A DNA stretch of 64,000 nt. Source: Anaerolineales bacterium. GTDB taxonomy: Bacteria; Chloroflexota; Anaerolineae; Anaerolineales; Anaerolineaceae. The notes beneath the pieces are model-generated. The model made no database searches and was not told where the DNA came from. It was given only the letters and a program-made list of their open reading frames with translations. Location: assembly GCA_020060485.1 (NCBI GenBank), contig JAGVAB010000174.1:30578-94577 (forward strand), given 5' to 3'. Positions 22,782-39,152 of this stretch are shown one piece after another. The first letter of the stretch is position 1; every line of letters starts with the position of its first letter. Made by a program: the position numbers and the translations under genes.

Positions 22782-25436
<2,655 letters not shown>

Positions 25437-25492
25437 GGGATTTCTCCGGTGATTGTTTTTTTTGCGTGTTTATGCACCAAATTATTTGTGCG

Positions 25493-25514
25493 GGGGCGAG
25501 ACATGCCTCGTCCC
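25493..25514. repeat. Short palindromic element between icd and acnA
   Basis: GGGGCGAG (25493-25500) and CTCGTCCC (25507-25514) pair with one G-T around ACATGC. Sequences of this GGGCGAG-ATGC-CTCGCCC kind recur as dispersed repeats in various genomes. Only one copy was seen here, so the repeat assignment rests on general knowledge. Confidence 0.4.
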
Positions 25515-25554
25515 TACGTTATTTGGATATCGATCGCACCAATTTATCGTTGAT

Positions 25555-26859
25555 CTACTTCTCCATATACTTTATGACAGCCTGCCCAAATTCCGAGGTT
25601 GAGAGCAGCTTTGCGCCCAGCACCAGTTTGTGCAGGTCAAAGGTTAACATACGCCGGGCGACTGTGGTCTCGATACCCTTCACTACCAGATCGGCGGCTT
25701 CGTTCCAGCCCAGGTGACGCAGGAGCATCTCGCCCGAAAGGATCAATGAACTTGGGTTGGCGCAATTCTGACCGGCGAACTGCGGAGCGGTGCCATGCGT
25801 GGCCTCAAAGATGGCTGCGCCGGTGTCATAATTGATGTTACCGCCAGGAGCGATGCCCACCCCGCCCACCTGGGCAGCCAGGGCATCCGAAAGGTAATCG
25901 CCGTTCAGGTTGAGGGTGGCCAGCACATCCAGGCTGGCAGGGTCGGTGAGCAGCTTTTCAAAGGCGATGTCGGCAATCAAATCTTTGACCAGCAACCGGC
26001 CGCCAGCCAGGGCGGTTTCCATTTCAGCGTTGGCTGCATCGTTGCCCTTTTCGACTTTGGTGCGCTGCCATTGTTCCATTGTGTAAACTCGATCCCCAAA
26101 TTCTTCCTGAGCCAGGGCATAGCCCCAGTTTCGAAAGGCGCCTTCGGTGAATTTCATGATATTGCCCTTATGCACCAGGGTCACGCTGCGGCGTTGATGG
26201 TCAAGCGCCCACTGGATGGCGGCCCGCACCAGGCGCTGGCTGCCTTGCTGAGAAACAGGTTTGATGCCCAGGCCAACATTCTCGGCAAAGCGCAGCTTGG
26301 CATAGTCTTTGGGGAAATGCTCTTTCAGCAGGCTCAGAAATTTTTGATTGTCTTCGCTCCCGGCGGCGAACTCGATGCCGGTGTAGATATCCTCGGTGTT
26401 CTCGCGAAAGACGATCATGTTCACATGCTCGGGAGTGCGCACTGGCGAAGGCAGGCCATTGAACCAGCGCACCGGCCGTTGGCAGACGTAGAGGTCAAGG
26501 GCCTTGCGCAGAGCCACGTTCAGCGAGCGGATGCCGCCACCGACCGGGGTGGTCAGCGGGCCTTTGATGCCCACCAGATGGTCGGTAAAGGATTGGATGG
26601 TTGCATCTGGCAGCCAGGATCCAGTCAGGTTGAAGGCTTTTTCACCGGCCAGCACTTCCAGCCAGTGAATGCGGCGCTGGCTTCCATAGGCTCTCTCCAC
26701 GGCTGCATCCAGCACACGATGGGCAGCTTGCCAAATGTCCGGGCCGATGCCGTCACCCTCAATGAAAGGGATCAGCGGATCGGGTGGAACGTTCAGTTGG
26801 CCGCCAGGGATGCAGGTGATGCGGTTGCCAGACGTTGCTGCAGAGGAATGGGTCATCAT
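25555..26859 (-). CDS. icd: NADP-type isocitrate dehydrogenase
   Basis: 434 residues, oxidative decarboxylation of isocitrate to 2-oxoglutarate. Family motifs: [12 protein letters not shown] near the N-terminus, [12 protein letters not shown] with the substrate-binding Ser that is phosphorylated in E. coli, [14 protein letters not shown], and the cofactor-binding [11 protein letters not shown]. The ATG at 26859 has GGAGGCG upstream; a longer frame from 26940 would begin upstream of the predicted transcription start and is rejected. NADP rather than NAD use is inferred from similarity to E. coli-type Icd. It heads the icd-acnA transcript. Confidence 0.94.
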
Positions 26860-26894
26860 GGAATTCGCCTCCGGGAGAGGATTGTCTTGTTTGA

Positions 26895-26950
26895 TGGGAC
26901 AGTGTCTGAACAGATGGGACAATTCTACTTGCCGCAGCATGGCATGTCAA
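26895..26950 (-). promoter_or_regulatory. icd promoter with paired TGTCCCA operator
   Basis: On the minus strand TTGACA (26945-26950), 17 bases and TAGAAT (26922-26927) form a promoter. Abutting the -10 is AATTGTCCCAT, then 12 bases, then TGTCCCA; on the plus strand the two TGGGACA copies are at 26895-26901 and 26915-26921, exactly 20 bp apart. The same arrangement occurs at the iclR promoter, so this is very likely the IclR operator. Confidence 0.75.
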
Positions 26951-27184
26951 GGTTTCTGGTGGAAATCACCCGGTCGCTAGCCAGGCGGTATGGATCCTTC
27001 CGGCAGAGCTTGCCGGCATTGACCCTGTAAGGCAAGCCGGCATGTGGGCCGCGGATGATTTCAAGGGGCGTTCCCTATGCCAGTCGAAGGAAACGAGTTT
27101 CCATATTAACACGACGGCTGCGCAAGTTGAAGCCGATACCCTTTCAGTTGCTCCGTTGATAACAAAATCTTAACCAAAAACCTC

Positions 27185-27241
27185 TTGACAAGCGCCAGAA
27201 AAAAGTTGTATAATTGTCCCATTAGACTGGACGATGTCCCA
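27185..27241 (+). promoter_or_regulatory. iclR promoter with paired TGTCCCA operator
   Basis: TTGACA (27185-27190), an 18-base spacer and TATAAT (27209-27214) give a near-perfect promoter. Directly after the -10, TGTCCCA occurs at 27215-27221 and again at 27235-27241, as AATTGTCCCAT-N12-TGTCCCA. This matches the element at the icd promoter base for base outside the spacer. The place over the transcription start suggests autorepression. Confidence 0.8.
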
Positions 27242-27266
27242 CTTGGTAAGACGAAATTAAAAACCT

Positions 27267-28031
27267 ATGCCTGCTGAAAAGATGCAATCCCTGGAAAGAG
27301 CCGTATCCATCCTCAACTGCTTCAGTTTGGAGCAGCCGGAGATGGGTGTGCGCGAAGTGGCGCGCAAGATCGACCTTTCGGCCAGCACCACCGGGCGCAT
27401 CATGGCTGGTTTGAAAGAAATGGGTTTGCTCAGTCAGAATCCCGACACACGGGCTTATGCTTTGGGGGCTTCTGTGCTGGTGTGGGCCGGGGTTTATTCC
27501 AGTACGCTGGATGTGCGCAACGCAGCCCTTTCGGCCATTGACCGCCTGCACCGCGACACGCAAGAGACCATTAGCCTGTACATTCTGCAAGGCGACGAGC
27601 GGGTGTGTGTAGAGCGGCGCGAAAGTCCGCAAACTGTGCGCCTGGTGACCCGCGTTGGCCGGCGTCTGCCGCTTTATGCCGGGTCTGCAGGCAAAGTCTT
27701 TTTGGCATTTTTGCCTGCTGAAAGAACCTCCGAAATTCTCGACAAATCAGCCTTCACTCCCTTCACGCCCAGCACAATCATCGATCGCAATGCACTGGAA
27801 GCTGAACTGGAAGTTGTGCGTCGTCAGGGATTTGCTCTCAGCACTGGCGAATGGCAGAGCGAAGCCTCCGGGATCGCTGCACCGATCTTTAACGAAAAAG
27901 GCGAGATCGTGGCAGCATTAACCATCTCCGGCCCTTCCCAGCGCTTCACAGAGGAAAAGATGAATCAGTATGCTGATGTGGTTGCCGCGGCCGCAGGTGA
28001 AGTCTCACGCACCATGGGATACAGGAGGTGA
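27267..28031 (+). CDS. IclR family transcriptional regulator
   Basis: 254 residues. The N-terminal winged helix (about 1-70) contains MQSLERAVSIL and the recognition region LSASTTGRIMAGL. The C-terminal effector domain has the family pattern around RLVTRVGRRLPLYAGSAGKVFLAF and ASGIAAPIFNEKGEIVAALTISGP, described here by these segments only. It lies between icd-acnA (divergent) and gltA (downstream), and its own and the icd promoters carry the same operator, so control of the citrate-to-2-oxoglutarate steps is a reasonable inference. The ligand is unknown; a small organic acid would be usual for the family. The stop codon lies inside the ribosome-binding site of a tiny downstream gene. Confidence 0.93.
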   Translation: MPAEKMQSLERAVSILNCFSLEQPEMGVREVARKIDLSASTTGRIMAGLKEMGLLSQNPDTRAYALGASVLVWAGVYSSTLDVRNAALSAIDRLHRDTQETISLYILQGDERVCVERRESPQTVRLVTRVGRRLPLYAGSAGKVFLAFLPAERTSEILDKSAFTPFTPSTIIDRNALEAELEVVRRQGFALSTGEWQSEASGIAAPIFNEKGEIVAALTISGPSQRFTEEKMNQYADVVAAAAGEVSRTMGYRR

Positions 28032-28033
28032 TC

Positions 28034-28141
28034 ATGAAAATTGCCATGCTCTTGATGCCTCAGCTTTTGCCGCGACTGCCAGAGCAGCCAGCGGCTATGC
28101 AGCCCGTGATTTTCCAGCCGGCTGCCATGGGTGAGATGTAA
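28034..28141 (+). CDS. Possible 35-residue small protein or leader peptide
   Basis: A short frame starts 2 bases after the iclR stop and is preceded by AGGAGGTGATC, an almost perfect match to the anti-Shine-Dalgarno sequence and among the strongest ribosome-binding sites in the window. The peptide starts MKIAMLLMPQLL, is rich in Met, Pro and Gln, and has no charged cluster or clear membrane segment beyond a mildly hydrophobic start. A terminator follows 27 bases later. It could be a real small protein or a leader affecting gltA expression. No family is recognised. Confidence 0.45.
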   Translation: MKIAMLLMPQLLPRLPEQPAAMQPVIFQPAAMGEM

Positions 28142-28167
28142 GAAGGTGCAGGAAATTGAAATGAATC

Positions 28168-28199
28168 ATTCCCTGGCCTTCCAGGGAATTTTTATTTTT
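28168..28199 (+). terminator. Intrinsic terminator between iclR and gltA
   Basis: ATTCCCTGG (28168-28176) pairs with CCAGGGAAT (28181-28189) around a 4-base loop and runs into TTTTATTTTT. It separates the iclR transcript from gltA unless there is readthrough or antitermination. Confidence 0.88.
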
Positions 28200-28256
28200 G
28201 ATGCGTTTGGTGAGATGGCAAAAGGCGTTACGGGACAAATTTAATGGAGGAGGATC

Positions 28257-29624
28257 ATGGTGCTCGCAGATAATAACCTTTCAACAAATCTTTCGCTTTT
28301 TTCCAGCGTACTGCCGCAACTGGAGGAAAAGATCGCGGCCCAGTTGCCAGCCATGAGAACCCGCATCCAGCGCCTGGTCAAAGAACATGGCGATCAGAAG
28401 ATCGGCGAAGTCACCGTGGCCCAGGTCTTTGGCGGGCTGCGCGGGGTGAACATGCTCACCGGTGATATTTCCTACGTGGACCCGTATGATGGCATCCAAA
28501 TGCGCGGGTTGTCTATCGATTGCTTGATGGAAAAGCTTCCCAAGCGGCCAGGAACACAAGTACCCCTGGCCGGCGGGGTGTATTATTTGCTGTTGATTGG
28601 CGAGATGCCCACCCTGGAAGATGCCTTGATGATTGAGGACGAGTGGAAGGAGAGGCGCTTGATCCCGGGGTATGTGCTGCGCATGTTGAAAGCCATGCCG
28701 CAGGAGACGCACCCCATGACCATGTTCTCGCAGGCTGTGCTGGCCATGCAGAATGAATCCGAATTTGTGCGCGCGTATCAAAACGGTTTGCGCAAGCCGG
28801 ATTACTGGAGACCGACCCTGGAGGACAGCCTTAACCTGACCGCCAAATTGCCTGCCCTGGCTGCATATATCTACAACCTGAAATACCGCGACGGCCAATT
28901 CATCCCCATGGATCTGGATATGGACTGGAGCGCCAACTTTGCCCATATGATTGGCAAGGAGGATGACCTGGAGTATCAGGAGCTGTGCCGGTTGTTCTTC
29001 TTCCTGCATGCTGACCAGGGGCGCGGCAATGTTACTGCCCATACCACCCATCTGGTCAGCTCAACCCTTTCGGACGTGTATTATGCCTGCTCGGCAGGCT
29101 TGAACGGCCTGGCCGGCCCGCTGCATGGCCTGGCCAACCAGGAATGCCTGCGCTGGCTGCTTGACCTGCGCGCCGGCTTTGGCGGCCTGCCATCCCGCGC
29201 CCAGTTGGAGAACTTCGCCTGGCGCACCCTTGACTCCGGTCAGGTGATCCCTGGTTACGGGCATGCCGTGTTGCGCCACACTGACCCGCGCTTTACCGCC
29301 CAACTGGAATTTGGCAAGAAGTACATGCCAGATGACGATCTGTTCAAGCTGGTTGAACTGGTCTATCAGGTTGTGCCGCGGGTGTTGACCAAGCTGGGCA
29401 AGGTGAAGAGCCCCTGGCCGAATGTGGACGCCATCAGCGGCACCCTGCAATATCATTACGGCGTGCGCGAATTTGATTTCTACACCGTGCTGTTTGGCGT
29501 CAGCCGCATGCTGGGTGTGACCGCCGCCTGTGTGTGGGAACGCGCTCTCGGCCAGCCGATTGAGCGTCCCAAATCGATGACCACCGATATGCTTGAAAAA
29601 TTAATTGGACTGGACGCCGAGTGA
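28257..29624 (+). CDS. gltA: Citrate synthase, mitochondrial-type (type I)
   Basis: 455 residues, condenses acetyl-CoA with oxaloacetate. The sequence follows the eukaryotic-type enzyme: NGLAGPLHGLANQE holds the catalytic His equivalent to pig His274, GYGHAVLRHTDPR holds His320, and PWPNVDAISG holds Asp375. In the usual HSDHEGGN segment this protein reads HADQGRGN, so the second His (pig His238, oxaloacetate binding) is Gln. The start follows GGAGGAGG. A single GGGACAA, the core of the nearby IclR-type operator, lies at 28232-28238 just before the ribosome-binding site. A strong terminator follows. Confidence 0.93.
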   Translation: MVLADNNLSTNLSLFSSVLPQLEEKIAAQLPAMRTRIQRLVKEHGDQKIGEVTVAQVFGGLRGVNMLTGDISYVDPYDGIQMRGLSIDCLMEKLPKRPGTQVPLAGGVYYLLLIGEMPTLEDALMIEDEWKERRLIPGYVLRMLKAMPQETHPMTMFSQAVLAMQNESEFVRAYQNGLRKPDYWRPTLEDSLNLTAKLPALAAYIYNLKYRDGQFIPMDLDMDWSANFAHMIGKEDDLEYQELCRLFFFLHADQGRGNVTAHTTHLVSSTLSDVYYACSAGLNGLAGPLHGLANQECLRWLLDLRAGFGGLPSRAQLENFAWRTLDSGQVIPGYGHAVLRHTDPRFTAQLEFGKKYMPDDDLFKLVELVYQVVPRVLTKLGKVKSPWPNVDAISGTLQYHYGVREFDFYTVLFGVSRMLGVTAACVWERALGQPIERPKSMTTDMLEKLIGLDAE

Positions 29625-29662
29625 GTTTTAGCAACTACCTGATCTTTTGAATTCTCCATGAG

Positions 29663-29704
29663 CCCGTCACCCTCCCGCTGGTCGGGAGGGTGACGGGGTT
29701 TTTA
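29663..29704 (+). terminator. Intrinsic terminator after gltA
   Basis: Perfect 15-bp GC-rich arms (29663-29677, 29683-29697) with a 5-base loop, followed by GTTTTTAA. Confidence 0.93.
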
Positions 29705-29746
29705 ATGAGAAGTGAACTCACCACAGGGTCAATGTTGTCTGGTGGA

Positions 29747-30139
29747 TTATTCCAGCACCTCAATCCAACCCGCTTCCCCATCCACCCTCAACTGCATCCC
29801 ACTCGCCAGCCTGTCAATCTCGATGCGGTCCACGCAGGGGATCTCGGAGATGATGCAGCCCACGGCGGTGATGGTCTCGGTCTCGGCGTTGACCACCGCG
29901 GCCGGGGCCATGCCGTTGGCTTTCAGGCGGTAGAGGGTATACGAGCCGACCGTGGAGCCTTTACCGCTGGGGAAGACCAGCACTTTTCCGGCGATGCTCT
30001 GCCCTTCGAGGTCGTGCCCTTTTTCCAGGATGATTCCCGTGTCGGGGTCCACGCCGCCGTAAAAGGAAATGCCCATGTGGGAGACGAGGGCTTCGCCTTC
30101 CACCGTGCCGGAGAAAATCTTGCGTCCTTGCAGTTTCAT
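29747..30139 (-). CDS. Aconitase-X swivel (small) subunit, phosphomevalonate dehydratase-like
   Basis: 130 residues of the DUF126/AcnX swivel family. The conserved serine-containing loop is PSGKGSTVGS (Ser62), expected to close over the substrate held by the large subunit. Its start overlaps the large-subunit stop by 4 bp (ATGA), as in other two-gene AcnX enzymes. Known AcnX activities are phosphomevalonate dehydratase in archaea and cis-3-hydroxy-L-proline dehydratase in bacteria. With ubiD and ubiX just upstream in the same direction, the former is favoured here. It is the last gene of the group. Confidence 0.87.
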   Translation of the reverse strand: MKLQGRKIFSGTVEGEALVSHMGISFYGGVDPDTGIILEKGHDLEGQSIAGKVLVFPSGKGSTVGSYTLYRLKANGMAPAAVVNAETETITAVGCIISEIPCVDRIEIDRLASGMQLRVDGEAGWIEVLE

Positions 30140-31332
30140 TTCACCGCCTCCAGCACCACATCATCAAAGGATTTGTAAATGATCTTGAAGCCGTTTTTGG
30201 CATAGCCGTAATAGCAGGCCTTGGCGCTGTCGGTGGCCAGGGTTTTGAAGCGGCCCTGGATGGGAGCCACCACGCAGCAGGTGTCGGCGGCGAATTTTGC
30301 ACCAGCCGCCTCGATAATTTGCGTATAGCCAGCTTTGTCGGCGATCTGCTTGGTGGGGCGGGCGGTGGTGATCCAGAATTCTTTGGTCACCTGCTTGCCT
30401 TCCAGCAGCTCGGCGATGCGGGCGATCTCCCGCAGTGAGAGGTGCGGGCAGCCCAGGCTGACAAAATCCACCTCGTCTGCCGCGTCATTCATTGAATCAA
30501 TTGTCTCATCAATGTTGGCCTGGGTGATGTTAATGCGTTCCTGCGGGGCGGTGTAGCGTTCTGTTTCGGGGGTGATGCCTGGCATGTGGAAGAGTGCTGC
30601 CCCGCCATAGGTGGCGATGCTGGCGCAAAAGGATTTCAACTGTTCCACGGATGCCTGCGGGATACCCAGGATATATGGCACGGGCCGTATGCTGCGCCCT
30701 TCGAGCTGGTTGCCGATACATTTGCCCAGCGCACCAAAGTGGTGGTTTTCTGTCATTTCGGCATCGACTTCAATCGTGATGGTGGGGCGGCGGTTATTTT
30801 CCAGGTGCATGCCGTAGGCCGGGGTGAAGCCGGTCAGGCTGGCAGCCAGGGCGCTGGGGCCGCCTTCACGGTTGGTGCGTGCACCGAGTACCGAGTTGGC
30901 ATAACACACCGCACTGCTCTCGGCCCAGGCGATATGCTCGCCAAAATGGGGCGTGTTGCCAAACAGGTAGGGTGTGCAGGAGCAGGTGGTGATCACGCCC
31001 ATGCGCGCAAAAGCATCCAGCACGCGGTTCTGGTTGCGGGCGAAGTCCTCGGGGATGCCGAGGGCCTGCCAGTTTTCGGTGTCCATGCCGGCCGGGTTGA
31101 GGGTGGTCAGCACACGCGCCCGACCGTCGCCCGCGGCCAGCTCATCCAGGAATTGCAGCCCGGCCTCGCCCAGATTGGCGTAGCTGACCCCCGCCACCTG
31201 CACCGAGGTGACGGGCACCATTTCTTCGGTTCCGTAGATAGTGCCCAGGGCATCCAGTATCTGCATGGCTTTCCGGGTAGCCTTGCCGTGCGCCCCGTCG
31301 AGCATGGCTTGCTGAAGTGTGGTGAGTTTCAT
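30136..31332 (-). CDS. Aconitase-X catalytic (large) subunit, phosphomevalonate dehydratase-like
   Basis: 398 residues of the DUF521/AcnX family. Likely [4Fe-4S] ligands are in TTCSCTPY (C117/C119), LGCPH (C295) and DTCCV (C352/C353). In archaea the enzyme dehydrates (R)-5-phosphomevalonate to trans-anhydromevalonate 5-phosphate, which a UbiD-type enzyme then decarboxylates to isopentenyl phosphate. AAAGGAAATAA precedes the ATG. It lies 184 bp downstream of a UbiD-family gene across a spacer with three short repeats. The bacterial hydroxyproline branch of AcnX remains possible, since specificity cannot be read from motifs alone. Confidence 0.87.
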   Translation of the reverse strand: MKLTTLQQAMLDGAHGKATRKAMQILDALGTIYGTEEMVPVTSVQVAGVSYANLGEAGLQFLDELAAGDGRARVLTTLNPAGMDTENWQALGIPEDFARNQNRVLDAFARMGVITTCSCTPYLFGNTPHFGEHIAWAESSAVCYANSVLGARTNREGGPSALAASLTGFTPAYGMHLENNRRPTITIEVDAEMTENHHFGALGKCIGNQLEGRSIRPVPYILGIPQASVEQLKSFCASIATYGGAALFHMPGITPETERYTAPQERINITQANIDETIDSMNDAADEVDFVSLGCPHLSLREIARIAELLEGKQVTKEFWITTARPTKQIADKAGYTQIIEAAGAKFAADTCCVVAPIQGRFKTLATDSAKACYYGYAKNGFKIIYKSFDDVVLEAVK

Positions 31333-31390
31333 TTATTTCCTTTTCGCAGTTATATGAACCTGAGTTGCGGAGGATTAAATCGCGTTTATC

Positions 31391-31497
31391 GTAGTGACGA
31401 ATTTATTCGTCATAATGGCTGTTAATAACGACTAAAGTCATTACTACAATTTTTAACAAAATTCAGGCTAGAAAAAAATAACGAGAGTCGTTACTAC
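31391..31497. repeat. Three copies of a short hairpin-like repeat between ubiD and the AcnX genes
   Basis: Copies at 31391-31416 (plus), 31421-31447 (minus) and 31471-31497 (minus) share the pattern GTAGTRAYGA followed by 4-6 bases and TCGTTATT or TCGTCATAAT. The first contains the perfect palindrome TGACGAATTTATTCGTCA. They fill much of the spacer between two genes likely to be cotranscribed. They may be dispersed mobile hairpins or mRNA-processing sites. Confidence 0.65.
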
Positions 31498-31516
31498 AAT
31501 TATTTTGCATTTCAGG

Positions 31517-32827
31517 TTAAAAATCCTCCAACCCGAATTGCTTCAGGTCAACCCGCGGGAAGGCTGCTTTGTTGAAAGACTTGCCTGCTGTGTGCAGCGG
31601 TTTGGTCAGGTCAAAGCCCAGGCGGGTGGTGTTTTTGGTTTCCGGATCAGCCGAAGGGTCCAGGCTTGATCCCGGGGTGCGTTCTCTCATCACCAGATCT
31701 ACATCTCCCTGGAAACGGGTTGCCAGCGCCCATTCCACTTGCAGCGGGTCATAGATATCGATATCATCGTTTACCACGAAGACGTGCTTGCAGGAGCCGT
31801 GCCCGGCAAAGGCAGCCTCAATCGCCTTGCGGCCATCGTCCTCATGTTGCTTGTCGATTTGTACGATGGCATGCAGCCAGGAGCAGCCGCCCGGGTTGAC
31901 ATTGACATCCAGGCAGCGCACCACCTCGTTGACCTTTTTGAAAATGGTGGGTTCACGCGGCATACCCATCAGCAGCTTATGTTCCAATGCTCCAGGCAGC
32001 AGGGCGTGCCAGATGGCATCCCGGCGGTGGGTTACGGCCTTGACCAGCATGGTGGGTTCCTGGCGGATGGTGTCATAGGTCTCGGTCAGGTCAACGAATG
32101 GTCCTTCCGGGCTGCGCCGGTCCAGATAAACCGTGCCCTCGATCACAAATTCGCTTTCGGCGGGTACCAGCAGGTCAATGGTTTTGGCAGGCACCATTTG
32201 CAGCGGCTCAAGGGAATTGGCAATGGTCATTTCATCTATGCCAAGCTCAACCGAGGTGGCCGCCGCGGCCAGCACATTGGGCGCATTGCCGATGCAGATG
32301 GCCACGTCCAGCTCTTTGCGCTCCTGCAGGAAGGCGTCAAAATGCCGCGAGCGCACCACGCGCACCGCCATTTCGGTCGCCGAGAGCTGCATACAGCGAT
32401 GGAAGTCGGCATTCTGACCATACAGCGGGTGCTTTGCAATGAAGACCCCGGAGCTGATGTAGTTGCCGCCGTCTTTTTCGCAGTGGCGCAGGATGGGTAA
32501 GCGGTTCAGGTCAGGTTTCAGGTCAATCACTTCCTGGCATGGGGCATCACGCACCACCTGATATGGTGTGGGGTTGGCGATAGCAGCCATCAGGGCGGGA
32601 ATGATGTGGGCCACAGGGATGTTGAAGTAGTCCGCAAAGGCGGACTTGCTGCAAAAAAGGTTACCTGCTACGCGGAAGGCGGAGTCGGTCACTTGTTCGA
32701 ACAGGGCGGCCTGCGGCTCAATCCCCTTTAGTACGCCGGCCATCTCATAGGTTTTCGAGATGGGTGCGCTGACGCATACCAGACGATTTTCAGTTTCCAG
32801 TTTGTGAAGATGGGTTCTCAGAGACAT
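31517..32827 (-). CDS. UbiD-family prenyl-FMN-dependent decarboxylase
   Basis: 436 residues. UbiD-family features are the central EGPFVDLTETYD segment with a conserved acidic catalytic residue, the preceding IEGTVYLDRRSPEG strand, and a C-terminal region with VMRERTPGSSLDPSA. These enzymes use prenylated FMN, made by UbiX, to decarboxylate unsaturated acids. The neighbouring AcnX genes suggest trans-anhydromevalonate 5-phosphate as substrate, giving isopentenyl phosphate. Alternatives include 3-octaprenyl-4-hydroxybenzoate or aromatic acid decarboxylation, but no quinone genes are nearby. It starts 59 bp after ubiX; AAAGGTGA lies 12 bases before the ATG. Confidence 0.9.
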   Translation of the reverse strand: MSLRTHLHKLETENRLVCVSAPISKTYEMAGVLKGIEPQAALFEQVTDSAFRVAGNLFCSKSAFADYFNIPVAHIIPALMAAIANPTPYQVVRDAPCQEVIDLKPDLNRLPILRHCEKDGGNYISSGVFIAKHPLYGQNADFHRCMQLSATEMAVRVVRSRHFDAFLQERKELDVAICIGNAPNVLAAAATSVELGIDEMTIANSLEPLQMVPAKTIDLLVPAESEFVIEGTVYLDRRSPEGPFVDLTETYDTIRQEPTMLVKAVTHRRDAIWHALLPGALEHKLLMGMPREPTIFKKVNEVVRCLDVNVNPGGCSWLHAIVQIDKQHEDDGRKAIEAAFAGHGSCKHVFVVNDDIDIYDPLQVEWALATRFQGDVDLVMRERTPGSSLDPSADPETKNTTRLGFDLTKPLHTAGKSFNKAAFPRVDLKQFGLEDF

Positions 32828-32886
32828 GGGGGAGTTTCACCTTTGCATTTTGGCTATGATATGGAAAAGAAACCTGCCAGTCGGTC

Positions 32887-33489
32887 TCATTCCGCTGGCG
32901 GTGTCATACCCTGCCATTGGTATACGCCGGACAGGGAAACGCCCAGACGCTGGAGAAGGCGCAGAACGATATTGTCGATCATGTCTTCCAGGGTCTGCGG
33001 ACGCTGGTAAAAAGCCGGCAAGGGCGGGGCAATGATTGCGCCTGCCTGGGCGGCCTGGTCCATGATCCTGATATGGCCGCGGTGCAAGGGGGTTTCGCGC
33101 ACCGCCAGGACCAGCGGGCGGCCTTCCTTCAGGCAGACATCCGCCGCCCGGGCAATCAAATTCTCGGCGTGGGCATTGGCAACCTCGGACAGGGTTTTGA
33201 TCGAGCAGGGCAGGATGAGCATGCCGTCAACGGGAAAGGAGCCGGAAGCCAGCGGAGCGGCGATGTCCTCCGGCTGGTAGTAATGGTTGGCCAGGGCTTC
33301 AACCGCGCTGATCTGCCAGTCGGTCTCCTGGGTAATGGTCAGGCGGGCTGGGCCGCTGATGATGAGGTGCGTTTCCAGACCTGCCTGGCGCAGGAGCTGC
33401 AAGGCGCGGATTCCCAATATTGCACCGCTGGCACCGGTGATCGCCAGGACGATTTTCTTGTTTCGGGTCTCAAGGCTGCTGTTTGGCAT
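32887..33489 (-). CDS. ubiX: UbiX-type flavin prenyltransferase
   Basis: 200 residues. UbiX joins dimethylallyl phosphate to FMN to make the prenyl-FMN cofactor of UbiD enzymes. The Rossmann-like flavoprotein signature AITGASGA is near the N-terminus (19-23 GASGA); LPCSIKTLSEVANA and LVLAVRETPLH are conserved substrate and flavin-site segments. It is the first gene of ubiX-ubiD-acnX(L)-acnX(S). The cofactor pathway is self-consistent: dimethylallyl phosphate is itself an isoprenoid-pathway product. Confidence 0.93.
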   Translation of the reverse strand: MPNSSLETRNKKIVLAITGASGAILGIRALQLLRQAGLETHLIISGPARLTITQETDWQISAVEALANHYYQPEDIAAPLASGSFPVDGMLILPCSIKTLSEVANAHAENLIARAADVCLKEGRPLVLAVRETPLHRGHIRIMDQAAQAGAIIAPPLPAFYQRPQTLEDMIDNIVLRLLQRLGVSLSGVYQWQGMTPPAE

Positions 33490-33678
33490 AAGAATGCTCT
33501 CTATTTGTATAAACCGTTTCGGAGCCGATTGGCCGTTAGTGTAAACAAGAATCTACCACATTTATACTTTCCGTGGTTGATAAAACGACTGGCAAGCAAC
33601 TTTCGACTGGACATGTGAGTGGGGGTATCTATTCAAAAAATGCCAGTAATTCACCTACAAATTGCTGGCAGGCGGCAA

Positions 33679-33707
33679 TTGACAAACAATTCCTGTTCGT
33701 GTATGCT
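33679..33707 (+). promoter_or_regulatory. Promoter for the degenerate GGDEF gene
   Basis: TTGACA (33679-33684), a 17-base spacer and TATGCT (33702-33707) form a good sigma-70-type promoter about 75 bases upstream of the ATG at 33786. Confidence 0.7.
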
Positions 33708-33785
33708 GTGTTCAGGGGATGTGTTTCAGTATTTAATATTGGGGTCATTTGTTGGTGTTGTTATCTTTGGGACAGGTGGAATTCT

Positions 33786-34613
33786 ATGAAACGGTTATTA
33801 AATGCAGGGATCGTACTTTTGGTTTACCTTTCTTTGTTGTTGAATATCGACCGGCTTGATGTTCAGGGATGGGTGCCAATCGCGACCTTCGTCTATGTGC
33901 TTTGTACTTTGTCTGTGTTGGTGAATATGGTCGTTCCCTTACTGCGCCGTCAACAAACTGGCTATGCACTTATGTTTTGGGGTCTGGTTTATGTCCTCAG
34001 CAAGCTCTTGGTTTTTAACCAACACCCTTTTTGGGGAGAAAATTATACATTTATTACCATTCTTGAGTTGGCAGTGTATTTGCTGGCGGTGTATTTCACC
34101 AAGCAGTTTACCCAACATCTTTCCGAGGCTGGAAATCTGATCGAACAGGCTATTGTTCCGAATATGCGTCACCAGGTTCTGTCACTTGCGCAAGCCGGAA
34201 GTGCAATTGAAACAGAATTCATGCGCAGCAGGCGATACGACTATCCGATCTGTGCATTGATGGTGGAGCCCGAATGTGGCGCAGAAAATTGGCCTTTGGA
34301 GAAAGACCTCGAACGCGCAGTGCGGGAGATCGAGATGCAGATCCGCAGAAAATATGCTGCGACCGAACTGGCTGAAGCCATCAGCAACCATACCCGCCAG
34401 ACCGACTTGGTGGTCGATTTGGGAGAGCCAGGACAGTTCCTTTTGATCTGCCCCGATATCACCCCGGACAATGCAGAAAAATTCATGGGAAGATTGCAGC
34501 AGGCGGTGCAAGGATCGCTTGGCGTGAAACTGCGCTATGGCATGGCATTGTTCCCTCAAGATGCACCCTCATTTGAGGGGGTATTGCAGGTGGCGGAATC
34601 GAATATGAGGTGA
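33786..34613 (+). CDS. Membrane protein with degenerate GGDEF domain
   Basis: 275 residues from the ATG at 33786, which has AGGTGGA upstream; a longer frame from 33573 lacks support. Four hydrophobic segments occupy about 1-110. The C-terminal part aligns by eye to the diguanylate cyclase fold, with a conserved DLVVDLG strand, AEKFMGRLQQAV helix, and SLGVKLRYGMALFP. Where the GGDEF signature should stand it reads GEPGQF, so cyclase activity is not expected. It could bind nucleotide or serve as a structural partner. It lies just upstream of a BcsB-like gene, and cyclic-di-GMP is the usual signal in cellulose-type systems, so a regulatory link is plausible. Confidence 0.7.
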   Translation: MKRLLNAGIVLLVYLSLLLNIDRLDVQGWVPIATFVYVLCTLSVLVNMVVPLLRRQQTGYALMFWGLVYVLSKLLVFNQHPFWGENYTFITILELAVYLLAVYFTKQFTQHLSEAGNLIEQAIVPNMRHQVLSLAQAGSAIETEFMRSRRYDYPICALMVEPECGAENWPLEKDLERAVREIEMQIRRKYAATELAEAISNHTRQTDLVVDLGEPGQFLLICPDITPDNAEKFMGRLQQAVQGSLGVKLRYGMALFPQDAPSFEGVLQVAESNMR

Positions 34614-34669
34614 TTTTGGAGGAAAAACAGGGCAATATCGCGAAAAATGCCAAATCAGACATAATATAT

Positions 34670-34699
34670 CTTGAATTAATTCAAGTTTCGATATATGAT
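34670..34699 (+). promoter_or_regulatory. Promoter and palindromic operator candidate upstream of the BcsB-like gene
   Basis: TTGAAT (34671-34676), 17 bases and TATGAT (34694-34699) form a promoter. A perfect 16-bp palindrome, CTTGAATTAATTCAAG (34670-34685), overlaps the -35, which suggests a repressor or activator site. The regulator is unknown. Confidence 0.55.
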
Positions 34700-34811
34700 A
34701 TTAGAAACTATTAAATCTAGAGTATCTGTGATCGGTTGCTTAACTGGTAGCATTCGGAATGCAATAGAGACTGTGCAACCACATGCGCCATTAATGCGGG
34801 AGGATGATGAA

Positions 34812-37202
34812 ATGGCTAATAGAATTCGCAAATTTGTTTCAACTGGCTCGATCTTGTTTCTGGTTTTGTTTTTGGCTTTCAGCAGTATGCAGGTATCTGC
34901 AAAGGGTGTAGAACCAATTGGGGAGGAAGGGATTTCGGCCGGGCAGGCAGAAACACCGGAAATTCCTCCAACACCCACACCCCTGCCGGAAATTCACACT
35001 TATAACAACGAAATCTCATTCACGTTTGGGGATGTCGGGGAAAGAACTTTTACCCTGTATTATCCTTCTGCATATGTTTTCAATTTCAGTATGCCGAATC
35101 AGTGGTCGCTGTTTACTGAAGGCGGTGCAGGTTACATTGATGTCCATTATGATTTGTTTGAGGATTGGAGCAAAACTGCCGCCCAACCCAACCCAAACCT
35201 TAGTTCTGCATTGCGCACTCTGGGGCCAGACCGGCCGTATCTGGATGTGGTGGTCAATGAGGTTCTGGCAGGTTCTTTCACTCCAGAGGTGGGCCAGGAC
35301 AAGTTTGTGCGTATTCAGATCCCGACTGAAGCAGTGGTTGGAAGATTCACCAACAATCCATTCAATGATTTCACGGTGGAAATCCAGTACTATGGTAACC
35401 GGGATAACTTCTGCTTTTATGACGGCACAATAAAGATCTACGAAGACTCCAAGATCCACTTTGGTTTCCGGGAAGTCAACCCGGTGCGCAATATTGCGGA
35501 ATTCCCAAGACCACTTGTGCAGGATTCTTTCCTGCCTGAAACGATTAAAGTCGTTATCCCGGATGTTTTCACACAGGCAGATATGGAAGCAGTCACAGCT
35601 GTCTCTGCTGCCTTGGGCGCAGGAACCTTTGGCAATGTCAATCTGGAAGTACTGAAGGCTTCGGAAGCCGTACCCGGCGCGATCCAGAATCACAGCTTGA
35701 TCGTGATTGGTCAGCCTGGTAAGAATAGTTTCCTGCAATCCTTATATCAACGCCAGTTGTTGCCTACCGGGTTATCAGGCTCCAATATTATTCAGTATGG
35801 CGGCAGGGTCCTGTCGGAAGCAGACGGTGTTTTGCAGATCATTCCATCGGAATTCAACAACACCTACTCCTATTTTGTGATTACTGGCACCAGCGACACA
35901 GCCTTGGTGCGGGCTGCAAAGGCTTTGCCCAATTTACCGATCGGTGTTGAAGGTAACTTGCTGGTCGTTTCCACGGATGGGCCTGAAGCAGTTGCGGTAG
36001 AAACACCCATGGTGCGAACATTCAGCTCACTAGGTTTCAGGGCGAGGAGCTTCTTTGGCCTGGGTGTGCGGGTAGCCTTTTTGACCTTTTATGTGCCGCG
36101 AAATTGGTCAATCCAGGATGGAGCATCCATTGATTTGATCTATGCTTTCTCGGACAAACTGAGCGAAGCCAATTCAACCGTGACCATCGAGTTGAACGGT
36201 AATCGGATTGGTACTGCCCCGATAAAAGCGGGTATGGTCGGGGAGCAAGTGGTTCGCATTCCGCTGCGAAAGGAAGATATTCGAGTAGGGGCGGCGAACT
36301 TCCTGCGGTTAGAGGCAGTGATGCAATCCGAACTGGATTGCGCCAGCTTTGATTATCGGGCCAACTGGGTCAGTCTTCGTGAGACCAGCCGCCTGAATCT
36401 GCCTTATGCCGTGGTGACAAATCCGGATCTGCTTTCCCCATTTGTACATCCCACTTATTATCTGATTTATGAACCGGGAATGCTGGTTTCCTTGTCTGCC
36501 CAGCCCACCAAAGAGGAGATCAGTGCATTGGCAAATTTGGCCCGCCTGGTCGGAGCGCAAAATGGAGCAACAGCAGACATCATGGTCAGCATGGATCCTG
36601 CGCTGGACATGAGCAGCTATCCGGATCGGCATATTGTGTTATTTGGCCGACCTACGACCAATCCTCGAATCATGGAATTGAATGATGTAGTGCCACAGCC
36701 TTTCGTAACAGGTGAGGATAACCTGAAACAACGTATTGGCGGGGTTGCTTACCGGGTTTCGCAGGGCATTGATCTGGGAATGGTGGAAGTGATTCCTGCC
36801 CCCTGGAATAAATTTAAAGGTGTCACCGTTGTTACAGGCACTTCCGAAACGGGCGTTGGGCTGGCTTTGAGAGCTTTTTCGGATGCTGACAGCCTGTTTG
36901 ACCTGTTTGGGGACCTGCTGTTTGTAACGCCAACGGAAATTCTGTCTTTCCCCACCACAGAGCAAGTACCTGAGCTGCTCGATACTTTGGCACAGGAAGC
37001 GCTGTCGGCTGGGGAGGCACAACTGGAACAAATTTCCCCGAGCCCGCAAAGCGGCGTAACCCAAACTGGGCGATATGTGAGTGAGGAGGCAGCACAAAAG
37101 AACACGACCGGCACGATCCTGTTGGTCAGCCTGGTAGCACTGGGCGTGGTGTTTGCCATCCTGGGCATTGTGAAGACGACCCGCGGTGGACGCACTTCTT
37201 AA
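34812..37202 (+). CDS. BcsB-like cellulose synthase accessory protein
   Basis: About 796 residues. A signal peptide (RIRKFVSTGSILFLVLFLAFSSM at the N-terminus, given only as its hydrophobic core position 9-26) leads to a large extracytoplasmic region, and a single transmembrane segment (IVSLVALGVVFAILGIV type, near 770-790) anchors the C-terminus. Repeated carbohydrate-binding and flavodoxin-like modules as in the BcsB family are suggested by the paired SFFGLGVRVAFLTFYVP and LNGNRIGTAPIKAG segments. The start is the ATG at 34812 after GGGAGG. BcsB normally pairs with the BcsA synthase, but no BcsA is in the window. A BcsB-like secreted scaffold for the nearby polysaccharide is an alternative. 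Confidence 0.78.
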   Translation: MANRIRKFVSTGSILFLVLFLAFSSMQVSAKGVEPIGEEGISAGQAETPEIPPTPTPLPEIHTYNNEISFTFGDVGERTFTLYYPSAYVFNFSMPNQWSLFTEGGAGYIDVHYDLFEDWSKTAAQPNPNLSSALRTLGPDRPYLDVVVNEVLAGSFTPEVGQDKFVRIQIPTEAVVGRFTNNPFNDFTVEIQYYGNRDNFCFYDGTIKIYEDSKIHFGFREVNPVRNIAEFPRPLVQDSFLPETIKVVIPDVFTQADMEAVTAVSAALGAGTFGNVNLEVLKASEAVPGAIQNHSLIVIGQPGKNSFLQSLYQRQLLPTGLSGSNIIQYGGRVLSEADGVLQIIPSEFNNTYSYFVITGTSDTALVRAAKALPNLPIGVEGNLLVVSTDGPEAVAVETPMVRTFSSLGFRARSFFGLGVRVAFLTFYVPRNWSIQDGASIDLIYAFSDKLSEANSTVTIELNGNRIGTAPIKAGMVGEQVVRIPLRKEDIRVGAANFLRLEAVMQSELDCASFDYRANWVSLRETSRLNLPYAVVTNPDLLSPFVHPTYYLIYEPGMLVSLSAQPTKEEISALANLARLVGAQNGATADIMVSMDPALDMSSYPDRHIVLFGRPTTNPRIMELNDVVPQPFVTGEDNLKQRIGGVAYRVSQGIDLGMVEVIPAPWNKFKGVTVVTGTSETGVGLALRAFSDADSLFDLFGDLLFVTPTEILSFPTTEQVPELLDTLAQEALSAGEAQLEQISPSPQSGVTQTGRYVSEEAAQKNTTGTILLVSLVALGVVFAILGIVKTTRGGRTS

Positions 37203-37222
37203 ATCTGCGTGATTTTAAAACA

Positions 37223-37253
37223 AAATCCGGCGAAGACCTCGCCGGATTTTTCT
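37223..37253. terminator. Bidirectional terminator after the BcsB-like gene
   Basis: Arms 37223-37234 and 37240-37251 pair perfectly (12 bp) around a 5-base loop, with T and A ends that serve both strands. It separates the BcsB-like gene from the converging polysaccharide operon. Confidence 0.85.
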
Positions 37254-37266
37254 TTATGTCTAATTA

Positions 37267-37303
37267 AACCGGATACTGAGCTTGTCAAAGTGGCCGGTTT
37301 GGT
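37267..37303. repeat. Short dispersed repeat, copy 1
   Basis: About 37 bases beginning AACCGGATACTGAGC and ending GGCCGGTTTGGTT. It resembles two other copies at 56987 and 60203 (AACCG...GTC..AGGTGTCRGTTYGATT) and, like them, stands right after an intrinsic terminator. The ends pair with each other (AACCGG with CCGGTT). Confidence 0.5.
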
Positions 37304-37903
37304 TCATGCGGAGATTTTCCTTAGCCCCTCTGATCTTAGGCTATAGCTTTTCCCACAGATATGGCAGATAGACTGGCCATCCGCTGAAAAATTTAATCTT
37401 TCCCCACATTCACAGACCCAGCCGATCTGCCGGGCGGGATTGCCCACCGTGAGAGCGTGGGGGATCACATCTTTGGTCACGATGGAGCCGGCTCCCACCA
37501 TGGCGAATTCGCCGACGGTTATGCCGGGTAGAATGACCGCGGCGGCACCCAGGGTGGCGCCATATTTGATGCGGGTCGGCGCAAACCATTCATGGGATTC
37601 ATAGCGCAGACTGGCCTCTGGCAGGCGTGGGGAGCGCGGAAAGCGGTCGTTGGTAAAGAAAACATGCGGGCCGACAAAAACGCCGTCTTCAAGGGTGATG
37701 CCTTCAAAGAGCATATTGCCATTCTTAATGGTAACGTTATTGCCAACAACTGCGCCAGATTCGATGAAACAATTGTCACCGATATTGCAATTTGCCCCGA
37801 TGGATACTTCTTTCATGATATGGGTGAAAGCCCATATCTTGGTGTTCTCACCGATAGTCTCGGTTTCCACCAATGCAGTGGGATGGACAAAAGGTGCACT
37901 CAT
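37304..37903 (-). CDS. Hexapeptide-repeat acetyltransferase, WbpD/WlbB-like
   Basis: 199 residues. Left-handed beta-helix repeats fill most of the chain (pattern I-G-x-N-x, for example IGANCNIGDN and VGNNVTIKNG), the fold of sugar N-acetyltransferases. A C-terminal zinc-ribbon-like section has CECG and CHICG pairs. The family acetylates a 3-amino sugar nucleotide; the WbpB-like dehydrogenase and WbpE-like aminotransferase at 51894-54053 would supply the substrate. The start at 37903 (MSAPFVHP) follows AGGAGGAATA. A longer frame to 38125 overlaps the upstream glycosyltransferase and is rejected. It is the last gene of the large minus-strand operon. Confidence 0.85.
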   Translation of the reverse strand: MSAPFVHPTALVETETIGENTKIWAFTHIMKEVSIGANCNIGDNCFIESGAVVGNNVTIKNGNMLFEGITLEDGVFVGPHVFFTNDRFPRSPRLPEASLRYESHEWFAPTRIKYGATLGAAAVILPGITVGEFAMVGAGSIVTKDVIPHALTVGNPARQIGWVCECGERLNFSADGQSICHICGKSYSLRSEGLRKISA

Positions 37904-37928
37904 TATTCCTCCTGATGAATACTTAGGT

Positions 37929-39152
37929 CTACGGCTTGGATGTGAAAGGCAGGCCGGGCAGTAAACTGCCCAGGGTGTCAAAATACTTTTGACGTTCGTT
38001 TTCCCAGTTTTGCAGTTGCACAAATTCCTGGTCGGCGTGCTGCACCAGGGCTGTGCGTTTTTCGGGGTGATGGTACAAGTCCACAACTGCAGCGGCAAAT
38101 TCTTCTGGGGAGCCGGGGGAAACATAGTATACAGTGCGTTCTGAAAAGACGTCTTCCAATACTTTCAAACGCGAGGTGACTGTGGGCAGACCCATGACCA
38201 CGTATTCCAGCACTTTGCCGGGCATGGCAATGGACATGTGCGGGTCGGGCAGGGCGGGATAAATACCCAGGTCCGCCTGCGCCATTTCTTCGGGCATTTT
38301 GTCTCTGGGCAGCAGGGAGATGAAGTCCACATAGGTCTCGACCTTCAGCTCTGCTGCCAGCACTTGAAGCTGCCGGGTGGTTTTATTGTCATCGCCGATG
38401 ATGCGCAGGCGGATATTTGGGATTTCTGGAATCAAAACTGGCAGGCTGCGAATGGCAACATCCAGACCATAGCGCGGGGCAACCGTGCCAGGATAAAGCA
38501 GGATAAAAGGTTTGGAGGGGTCGTTCACACGCTGAAATCTTTGGCGGTCGAATACTTTGGCATCCGGCAGGTTCTGGGTAACGGTGATCTTGGCGGCAGG
38601 TATGCCACGTTTGATCAAGTTTTCCTTGAAGGTCGGGTTGGCTGTCAGTACGGCGTGAGAAAAAGCAGCCGAAAGCCATTCTTGCCAGACCATCAGCCGT
38701 ACCAACGGGTGGCTGGCTGCTTTCTGGAATTTGGCCTGGTAGAATTCCGGCATGGGGTCATGGATGTCCAGGATGAGCCTGGCACCAAACAGGCGCGGCA
38801 GAAAAGCGGCAAAGACCAGGAAGTCGGGCATATTGTGAACGTGGATGATGTCGTAAGGCTGGCGAAGATGCAGGAAAAATAATTGAAACGAGAAGAACAG
38901 CATCGCCAGTAAATATTCAAAAAGATAGGCAGCCAGGCTTTGGCTGGTGTGGGGCAAGGGGATGGTGTAAACACGCAGGTTATTGCCGCGTACGATGGGC
39001 AATTTTTCCTCGCCAGGCGTGGAAAGCACATCCACGGACACGCCTTGCTCAAGCAGGGCCTCGGCATAACGCATGACGCGGGCATCTGTGTCGTAAACCT
39101 GCTGTACGATCATGCAAACCCTGATCTGCTTGTTTTTATCGCGTGTTCTCAT
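37929..39152 (-). CDS. GT4-family glycosyltransferase
   Basis: 407 residues, two-domain GT-B glycosyltransferase. The N-terminal domain begins VCMIVQQVYDTDARVMRYAEAL; the C-terminal domain shows LLYPGTVAPRYGLD and the E-x7-E type region near GKVLEYVVMGLPTV, typical of group 1 transferases. It should add a sugar to the lipid-linked repeat unit at the inner membrane face. The start overlaps the upstream deacetylase stop by ATGA. Donor and linkage cannot be determined. Confidence 0.87.
   Translation of the reverse strand: MRTRDKNKQIRVCMIVQQVYDTDARVMRYAEALLEQGVSVDVLSTPGEEKLPIVRGNNLRVYTIPLPHTSQSLAAYLFEYLLAMLFFSFQLFFLHLRQPYDIIHVHNMPDFLVFAAFLPRLFGARLILDIHDPMPEFYQAKFQKAASHPLVRLMVWQEWLSAAFSHAVLTANPTFKENLIKRGIPAAKITVTQNLPDAKVFDRQRFQRVNDPSKPFILLYPGTVAPRYGLDVAIRSLPVLIPEIPNIRLRIIGDDNKTTRQLQVLAAELKVETYVDFISLLPRDKMPEEMAQADLGIYPALPDPHMSIAMPGKVLEYVVMGLPTVTSRLKVLEDVFSERTVYYVSPGSPEEFAAAVVDLYHHPEKRTALVQHADQEFVQLQNWENERQKYFDTLGSLLPGLPFTSKP

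What the first reader, a model, noticed from the sequence alone, without database searches (positions are those of the whole stretch)
29747..33489. Archaeal-type mevalonate module (AcnX large/small + UbiD + UbiX) in a bacterium
Four minus-strand genes encode UbiX, a UbiD-family decarboxylase, and both subunits of aconitase-X. In archaea such as Aeropyrum pernix, phosphomevalonate dehydratase (AcnX) makes trans-anhydromevalonate 5-phosphate and a UbiD-type enzyme with prenyl-FMN (from UbiX) decarboxylates it to isopentenyl phosphate. Bacterial AcnX is otherwise known as hydroxyproline dehydratase, which needs no UbiD or UbiX. The set of all three parts in one group argues for a complete dehydration-decarboxylation pathway.
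Basis: partly seen in the sequence, partly recalled or inferred. Interest (0 to 1): 0.85.

Follow-up and report, generated by a model that had tools for sequence, protein, structure and literature searches.

The report
Archaeal isoprenoid-making gene set in Anaerolineae
A Chloroflexota bacterium carries, in one small gene cluster, archaeal-type enzymes that probably make an isoprenoid building block by dehydration and decarboxylation; the genes look borrowed from small archaea, and most relatives found with them also hold a gene for the ATP-using enzyme of the same step.

Summary
In detail: four minus-strand genes encode UbiX, UbiD and both aconitase-X (AcnX) subunits. The host is Anaerolineae, Chloroflexota. 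The reading as phosphomevalonate dehydratase plus anhydromevalonate-phosphate decarboxylase is well supported by sequence. The mevalonate 5-phosphate contacts and cluster cysteines published for archaeal AcnX are all kept. AcnX and UbiD each nest among Diapherotrites-type archaea, where the same genes sit beside isopentenyl phosphate kinase in 26 of 30 loci. Four Anaerolineae relatives have mevalonate kinase and isopentenyl phosphate kinase and no IspG. The window's own genome is not held, so its other pathway genes are untested.

The pathway is already reported in Chloroflexota (Kanno 2024; seen only as a citation). What may be new: the class holds at least two AcnX/UbiD lineages, the window's being the archaeal-nested one, and 7 of 9 of its genomes also hold a mevalonate-family decarboxylase gene, in one case about 0.1 kb from UbiD. 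In the rest of the class the two routes are mostly alternatives. Interest is lowered mainly by the prior paper.

The parts
32887..33489 (-). UbiX flavin prenyltransferase, expected to make the prenyl-FMN cofactor for UbiD (function inferred from family)
   Evidence: PF02441, TIGR00421 over cut-off; PDB UbiX 6m8t E 6.7e-54
31517..32827 (-). UbiD-family decarboxylase, probable trans-anhydromevalonate 5-phosphate decarboxylase
   Evidence: Arg144, Glu241 and Asp246 kept in 51 of 51 rows; tree; with AcnX in 30 of 30 archaeal loci
30136..31332 (-). AcnX large subunit, probable phosphomevalonate dehydratase catalytic subunit; Cys119, Cys295, Cys352 at the Fe-S cluster positions
29747..30139 (-). AcnX small (swivel) subunit; Ser62-Thr63-Val64

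Best explanation
The four genes form one operon that turns mevalonate 5-phosphate into isopentenyl phosphate by the archaeal route. The two AcnX subunits form phosphomevalonate dehydratase: an Fe-S cluster held by Cys119, Cys295 and Cys352 removes the 3-hydroxyl and gives trans-anhydromevalonate 5-phosphate. UbiX prenylates FMN. UbiD uses that cofactor to decarboxylate the intermediate to isopentenyl phosphate. Isopentenyl phosphate kinase elsewhere in the genome would then make isopentenyl diphosphate. The module was probably acquired from a Diapherotrites-like or related archaeon, separately from the AcnX/UbiD lineage commoner in the same class. Shown here: families, gene order, residues, tree positions, partner genes in relatives. 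Inferred: co-transcription, the reactions, partner genes in the window's own genome, and the direction of transfer.
For: Families. The residues given for T. kodakarensis AcnX with mevalonate 5-phosphate (PMC8184944, passages) are kept in the window: large subunit Ala47, Gly48, Val49, Ser50, Asn53, Asn79, Glu138, Ser139, Ser140, Lys371, Tyr375; small subunit Thr63, Val64, and Ser62 at the place of the proposed general base. The cysteine pattern is that of the archaeal enzyme: sites A, 1 and B present, site C absent. AcnX tree, 85 rows: 11 window-lineage rows form a clade (100/100) inside a 47-row clade (100/97) whose other 36 rows are archaeal. UbiD tree, 51 rows: 10 window-lineage rows (100/100) inside an 18-row set with 8 rows of the Diapherotrites phylum (100/99). 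Archaeal loci: UbiD, AcnXL and AcnXS together in 30 of 30, isopentenyl phosphate kinase in 26 of 30; L005 also has mevalonate kinase and type 2 IPP isomerase beside them. Anaerolineae relatives: mevalonate kinase 4 of 4, isopentenyl phosphate kinase 4 of 4 over cut-off, IspG 0 of 4.
Against: No enzyme of this lineage is known to me to have been assayed. The window holds no mevalonate kinase, isopentenyl phosphate kinase, isomerase or decarboxylase by tblastn, and its genome is not held. 7 of 9 genomes of this lineage also have a mevalonate-family decarboxylase gene, so the module need not be essential and could serve another substrate. Small-subunit Leu27 of TkAcnX is Tyr in the window, though also in 21 of 30 archaeal rows. 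UbiX lies with the genes in 3 of 9 window-lineage loci, several of them cut by contig ends. The AcnX bootstrap had not settled.
Confidence: 0.9

Rival explanations
1. The module works on a different 3-hydroxy acid (catabolic or specialised) in these Anaerolineae, because isopentenyl phosphate already comes from the ATP-dependent decarboxylase.
For: 7 of 9 lineage genomes hold the decarboxylase family, with the catalytic Asp in 7 of 7. The module in the window is not beside mevalonate kinase or isopentenyl phosphate kinase, unlike 26 of 30 archaeal and 12 of 22 clade B loci with the latter kinase.
Against: All residues listed as contacting mevalonate 5-phosphate are kept. In G169 the decarboxylase gene is divergent and about 0.1 kb from UbiD (L059), and in G003 it lies about 8 kb from the module (L003), which hints at one shared substrate. 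G001 and G062 carry module genes with no decarboxylase hit, although assemblies may be incomplete.
Confidence: 0.07
2. [quoted passage not shown]
For: NCBIfam's only match for the large subunit is the hydroxyproline dehydratase model NF051439 (294 bits against a cut-off of 700).
Against: Far below that cut-off. Six group D rows of the same class do carry the hydroxyproline-type residues (Asp47 6 of 6, small-subunit Trp27 6 of 6, Ser at cysteine site 1 in 4 of 6) and fall outside the window's clade; the window carries none of these.
Confidence: 0.02
3. The module is archaeal DNA mis-assembled or mis-binned with bacterial contigs.
For: Nearest relatives outside the lineage are archaeal, and the records are metagenome assemblies as far as their titles tell.
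Against: The neighbouring citrate synthase is on the same contig and its named relatives are Anaerolineales, Anaerolineaceae or Chloroflexota. The same lineage is found in the window, 8 genomes and two database proteins on the AcnX tree, on contigs as long as 315,322 bases. Cluster G+C is 0.58, within the window's range of 0.472-0.606 for stretches of that length (5 kb before 0.56, 5 kb after 0.496).
Confidence: 0.01

Closest known systems
Archaeal (anhydromevalonate) mevalonate pathway, as in Aeropyrum pernix and many other archaea
   Same: Same enzyme set; order UbiX-UbiD-AcnXL-AcnXS as in Diapherotrites L005; active-site residues kept
   Different: The host is a bacterium; the isopentenyl phosphate kinase and isomerase of the L005 cluster are not beside it in the window
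Archaeal mevalonate pathway of Candidatus Promineifilum breve, Chloroflexota (Kanno et al. 2024)
   Same: Same pathway in the same phylum; that its enzymes were assayed is recalled, the paper is not held
   Different: Whether its genes belong to the window's lineage or to the commoner lineage (clade B) was not tested here
Haloarchaea-type / Roseiflexus-type pathway with phosphomevalonate decarboxylase
   Same: Same substrate and product (PMC3857490, passages and section 10); a homologue is in 7 of 9 genomes of the window's lineage
   Different: One ATP-dependent enzyme with no sequence similarity to AcnX and UbiD (PMC9254496, passages)
[quoted passage not shown]
   Same: AcnX family
   Different: Different signature residues and tree position

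Membership tests
Phosphomevalonate dehydratase (AcnX type IIb) | Separate large and small AcnX subunits | tested here: met
Phosphomevalonate dehydratase (AcnX type IIb) | Three cluster cysteines at sites A, 1, B and none at site C | tested here: met
   Cys119, Cys295, Cys352; Val at site C; sites defined in PMC10040528
Phosphomevalonate dehydratase (AcnX type IIb) | Residues contacting mevalonate 5-phosphate in TkAcnX | tested here: met
   all listed contacts kept; the non-contact small-subunit Leu27 is Tyr
Phosphomevalonate dehydratase (AcnX type IIb) | Groups with archaeal AcnX rather than hydroxyproline-type AcnX | tested here: met
Phosphomevalonate dehydratase (AcnX type IIb) | Dehydrates mevalonate 5-phosphate | not testable with these tools
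   needs an assay
Anhydromevalonate-phosphate decarboxylase (UbiD family) | Groups with UbiD of archaeal anhydromevalonate gene clusters | tested here: met
Anhydromevalonate-phosphate decarboxylase (UbiD family) | Decarboxylates trans-anhydromevalonate phosphate with prenyl-FMN | not testable with these tools
   needs an assay
Complete archaeal mevalonate pathway | Mevalonate kinase and isopentenyl phosphate kinase in the same genome | tested here: inconclusive
   window genome not held; both over cut-off in 4 of 4 Anaerolineae relatives
Complete archaeal mevalonate pathway | HMG-CoA synthase and reductase | not tested
   no search was made
[quoted passage not shown]

The most novel reading that the evidence does not exclude
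One lineage of Anaerolineae took the anhydromevalonate module from DPANN-like archaea, independently of the other AcnX/UbiD lineage in its class, and kept its older ATP-dependent phosphomevalonate decarboxylase. These bacteria would then run two chemically different routes from mevalonate 5-phosphate to isopentenyl phosphate, one ATP-free and oxygen-sensitive, one ATP-using, perhaps switched by oxygen or energy state.
Probability: 0.5. Interest if true: 0.6.

Novelty: new member of a known kind. Interest (0 to 1): 0.45.

Why it matters
It suggests that the archaeal isoprenoid route is present in one bacterial class as at least two lineages, one of them nested within DPANN-type archaea, and that some bacteria may hold both known solutions to the same step. 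That gives a natural system in which to ask why the ATP-saving, oxygen-sensitive route is kept or lost, an open question in the evolution of the mevalonate pathway.

Tried and rejected
Hydroxyproline dehydratase and mis-binning were considered and rejected (see rivals). A phosphomevalonate kinase test (TIGR01220) gave 0 of 9 genomes over cut-off, but 0 of 14 control genomes passed the cut-off too, so it shows nothing; whether the decarboxylase of this lineage acts on the mono- or the diphosphate therefore rests on residues alone. No Rfam family reached its gathering score in 24000-38000. A repeat-like stretch between UbiD and AcnXL was found once only in the window at up to 3 mismatches. The Fisher tests treat related genomes as independent and are not used as probabilities. 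No structure was predicted.
Full report
OBSERVATION. Searches confirm UbiX (32887-33489), UbiD (31517-32827), AcnX large (30136-31332) and AcnX small (29747-30139) on the minus strand. The set is convergent with a citrate synthase gene (28257-29624, +), which follows an IclR regulator (27267-28031, +); NADP isocitrate dehydrogenase and aconitase lie at 25555-26940 and 22782-25436, minus strand. A tblastn of mevalonate kinase, isopentenyl phosphate kinase, type 2 isomerase and the decarboxylase against the window gave no hit.

HOST. Among the 120 AcnX relatives listed, those with an organism name are Anaerolineaceae, Anaerolineales, Anaerolineae or Chloroflexota; the named ones among the 120 listed for the neighbouring citrate synthase are Anaerolineales, Anaerolineaceae or Chloroflexota. 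The protein's own contig is 94,577 bases. No whole genome is held.

FUNCTION FROM RESIDUES. The contacts of TkAcnX with mevalonate 5-phosphate are given in PMC8184944 (passages), and the three cysteines needed by the A. pernix enzyme in PMC10040528 (passages). On an alignment of 85 AcnX rows the window keeps all three cysteines and all listed large-subunit contacts, and Ser62, Thr63 and Val64 of the small subunit. Leu27 of the TkAcnX small subunit, which is not listed as a contact, is Tyr in the window and in 21 of 30 archaeal rows. Six rows of the same class (group D: L087-L089, L094-L096) carry Asp47 and small-subunit Trp27, the hydroxyproline-type letters; the window does not.

UbiD. Arg144, Glu241 and Asp246 of the window are kept in 51 of 51 rows, His143 in 50 of 51. 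The matching of Arg and the two acidic residues to the catalytic set of ferulic acid decarboxylase is recalled, not tested. The nearest solved relatives are a 3-polyprenyl-4-hydroxybenzoate-decarboxylase-like protein (6h6x, E 3.4e-72) and other UbiD enzymes; no solved anhydromevalonate-phosphate decarboxylase was listed under that name.

TREES. AcnX, 85 rows: the 11 window-lineage rows (window, 8 genomes, P0009, P0022) form one clade (100/100) inside a 47-row clade (100/97) whose other 36 rows come from the phylum of G005 or are proteins named Diapherotrites, Micrarchaeota, Aenigmarchaeota and Bathyarchaeota; the commoner Anaerolineae lineage (clade B, 22 rows) is apart (100/99). The program warned that the bootstrap had not settled (correlation 0.884) and of long branches. 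The branch that joins the window lineage to its nearest archaeal rows is weaker (84/92). UbiD, 51 rows: window lineage (10 rows, 100/100) inside an 18-row set with 8 rows of the Diapherotrites phylum (100/99). Holding the Anaerolineae lineages together was rejected for AcnX (p-AU 0.029, 11 plus 22 rows) and for UbiD (p-AU 0.00047, 10 plus 20 rows). Lineage labels were set from identity and gene order before the trees; L097 was moved from group D to B after the first tree. The trees are unrooted; the archaea-to-bacteria direction is inferred from the nesting. Archaeal sampling is narrow: one phylum, eight further named proteins and T. kodakarensis.

GENE ORDER. Diapherotrites L005 has mevalonate kinase, UbiX, UbiD, AcnXL, AcnXS, a HAD-type hydrolase, isopentenyl phosphate kinase and type 2 isomerase in a row. 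In the phylum of G005, 33 of 87 genomes match the window's AcnX; 30 loci were read, and UbiD and AcnXS are with AcnXL in 30 of 30, isopentenyl phosphate kinase in 26 of 30 and UbiX in 6 of 30, most stretches being only about 4 kb. Clade B: isopentenyl phosphate kinase in 12 of 22 loci, mevalonate kinase in 3 of 22, UbiD in 16 of 22. Window lineage, 9 loci with AcnXL: UbiD in 8, AcnXS in 7, UbiX in 3, none with mevalonate kinase; L060 has one weak partial match to isopentenyl phosphate kinase.

PARTNERS IN RELATIVES. G001-G004 (Anaerolineae) and G005 (archaeon): mevalonate kinase 5 of 5 and isopentenyl phosphate kinase 5 of 5 over cut-off, UbiD 60-71% identical in 5 of 5; IspG in 0 of the 4 bacteria, and a partial hit in the archaeal assembly. 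Of the five further window-lineage genomes, a mevalonate kinase relative was seen by tblastn in 4 of 4 looked at (G026, G062, G134, G169; G148 was not looked at), with isopentenyl phosphate kinase beside it in 2 of 4.

CLASS SURVEY. In 199 genomes of the class of G003: AcnX over cut-off in 89, UbiD at E 1e-60 or better in 82, diphosphomevalonate-decarboxylase family over cut-off in 95, IspG in 1. UbiD and decarboxylase occur together in 12 and neither in 34. Of 6 genomes with window-like UbiD (at least 60% identity), 5 have the decarboxylase; of 76 with other UbiD, 7 do. With G001, G002 and G004 added it is 7 of 9 for the window's lineage; G001 and G062 lack a hit. AcnX itself was found in 8 of those 9; the UbiD of G062 lies at a contig end. 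Completeness of these assemblies is not given, so absences are soft.

THE DECARBOXYLASE. It passes the cut-off of the diphosphomevalonate decarboxylase model and stays under that of the phosphomevalonate decarboxylase model (200 and 185 bits against 475, two proteins). In 7 of 7 window-lineage sequences the catalytic Asp is present and the diphosphate-type Lys absent; 6 of 7 have the phosphomevalonate-type Arg described for Roseiflexus (G148 has Val). Of 17 other sequences of the class aligned with them, 5 have that Arg and 2 have the Lys. The best solved relative of the G003 protein is 6n0z, deposited as diphosphomevalonate decarboxylase (E 4.9e-122); that it is the Anaerolinea thermophila phosphomevalonate decarboxylase is recalled, though PMC9254496 mentions such a structure (passages). 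So phosphomevalonate decarboxylase is the likelier reading, not a shown one. In G169 the gene is divergent from UbiD with about 0.1 kb between their probable starts (L059).

PRIOR WORK. PMC13001223 (passages) says some Chloroflexota encode an archaeal-type pathway, citing Kanno 2024 and Dellas 2013. Kanno 2024 could not be read; what I say of its content is recalled. PMC11052028 (passages) covers the archaeal distribution. The listings of searches (15 of 1,803 shown) showed no paper whose title or abstract start speaks of two such lineages, or of both routes together, in Anaerolineae; the library lacks most subscription papers.

VERDICT. An archaeal-type module that most likely makes isopentenyl phosphate. 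The kind is known in the phylum; the separate archaeal-nested lineage and its coexistence with the ATP-dependent enzyme are the parts worth following.

Noticed in passing
L075, L076, L077, L090, L091, L092, L093 (class genomes): AcnX fused in one stop-free frame with the large part first and the small part last in 7 of 7, the reverse of the domain order described for type I, and 17 bp to 4.5 kb from a UbiD gene; at the TkAcnX positions Asn53 and Ser131 they have Thr and Asn in 7 of 7.
   Followed up: partly
L087, L088, L089, L094, L095, L096: A second kind of AcnX in the same class with hydroxyproline-type residues and no UbiD match in the stretches read.
   Followed up: partly
G007, G018, G045, G068, G077, G096, G170: Seven genomes with the other UbiD lineage also hold the decarboxylase family; contamination was not ruled out.
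   Followed up: no
G192:C27:455-1486: The only genome of 199 in the class with IspG of the MEP pathway.
   Followed up: no
G005:C31:3849-4532: Partial IspG in a Diapherotrites assembly, perhaps a contaminant contig.
   Followed up: no
window 31333-31516: The 184-bp gap between UbiD and AcnXL is 67% A+T and holds pieces that look like inverted repeats by eye.
   Followed up: partly
window 34695-56924: A BcsB-like protein followed by a long exopolysaccharide cluster with glycosyltransferases, FemAB-like proteins, flippase, sugar transferase and O-antigen ligase.
   Followed up: no
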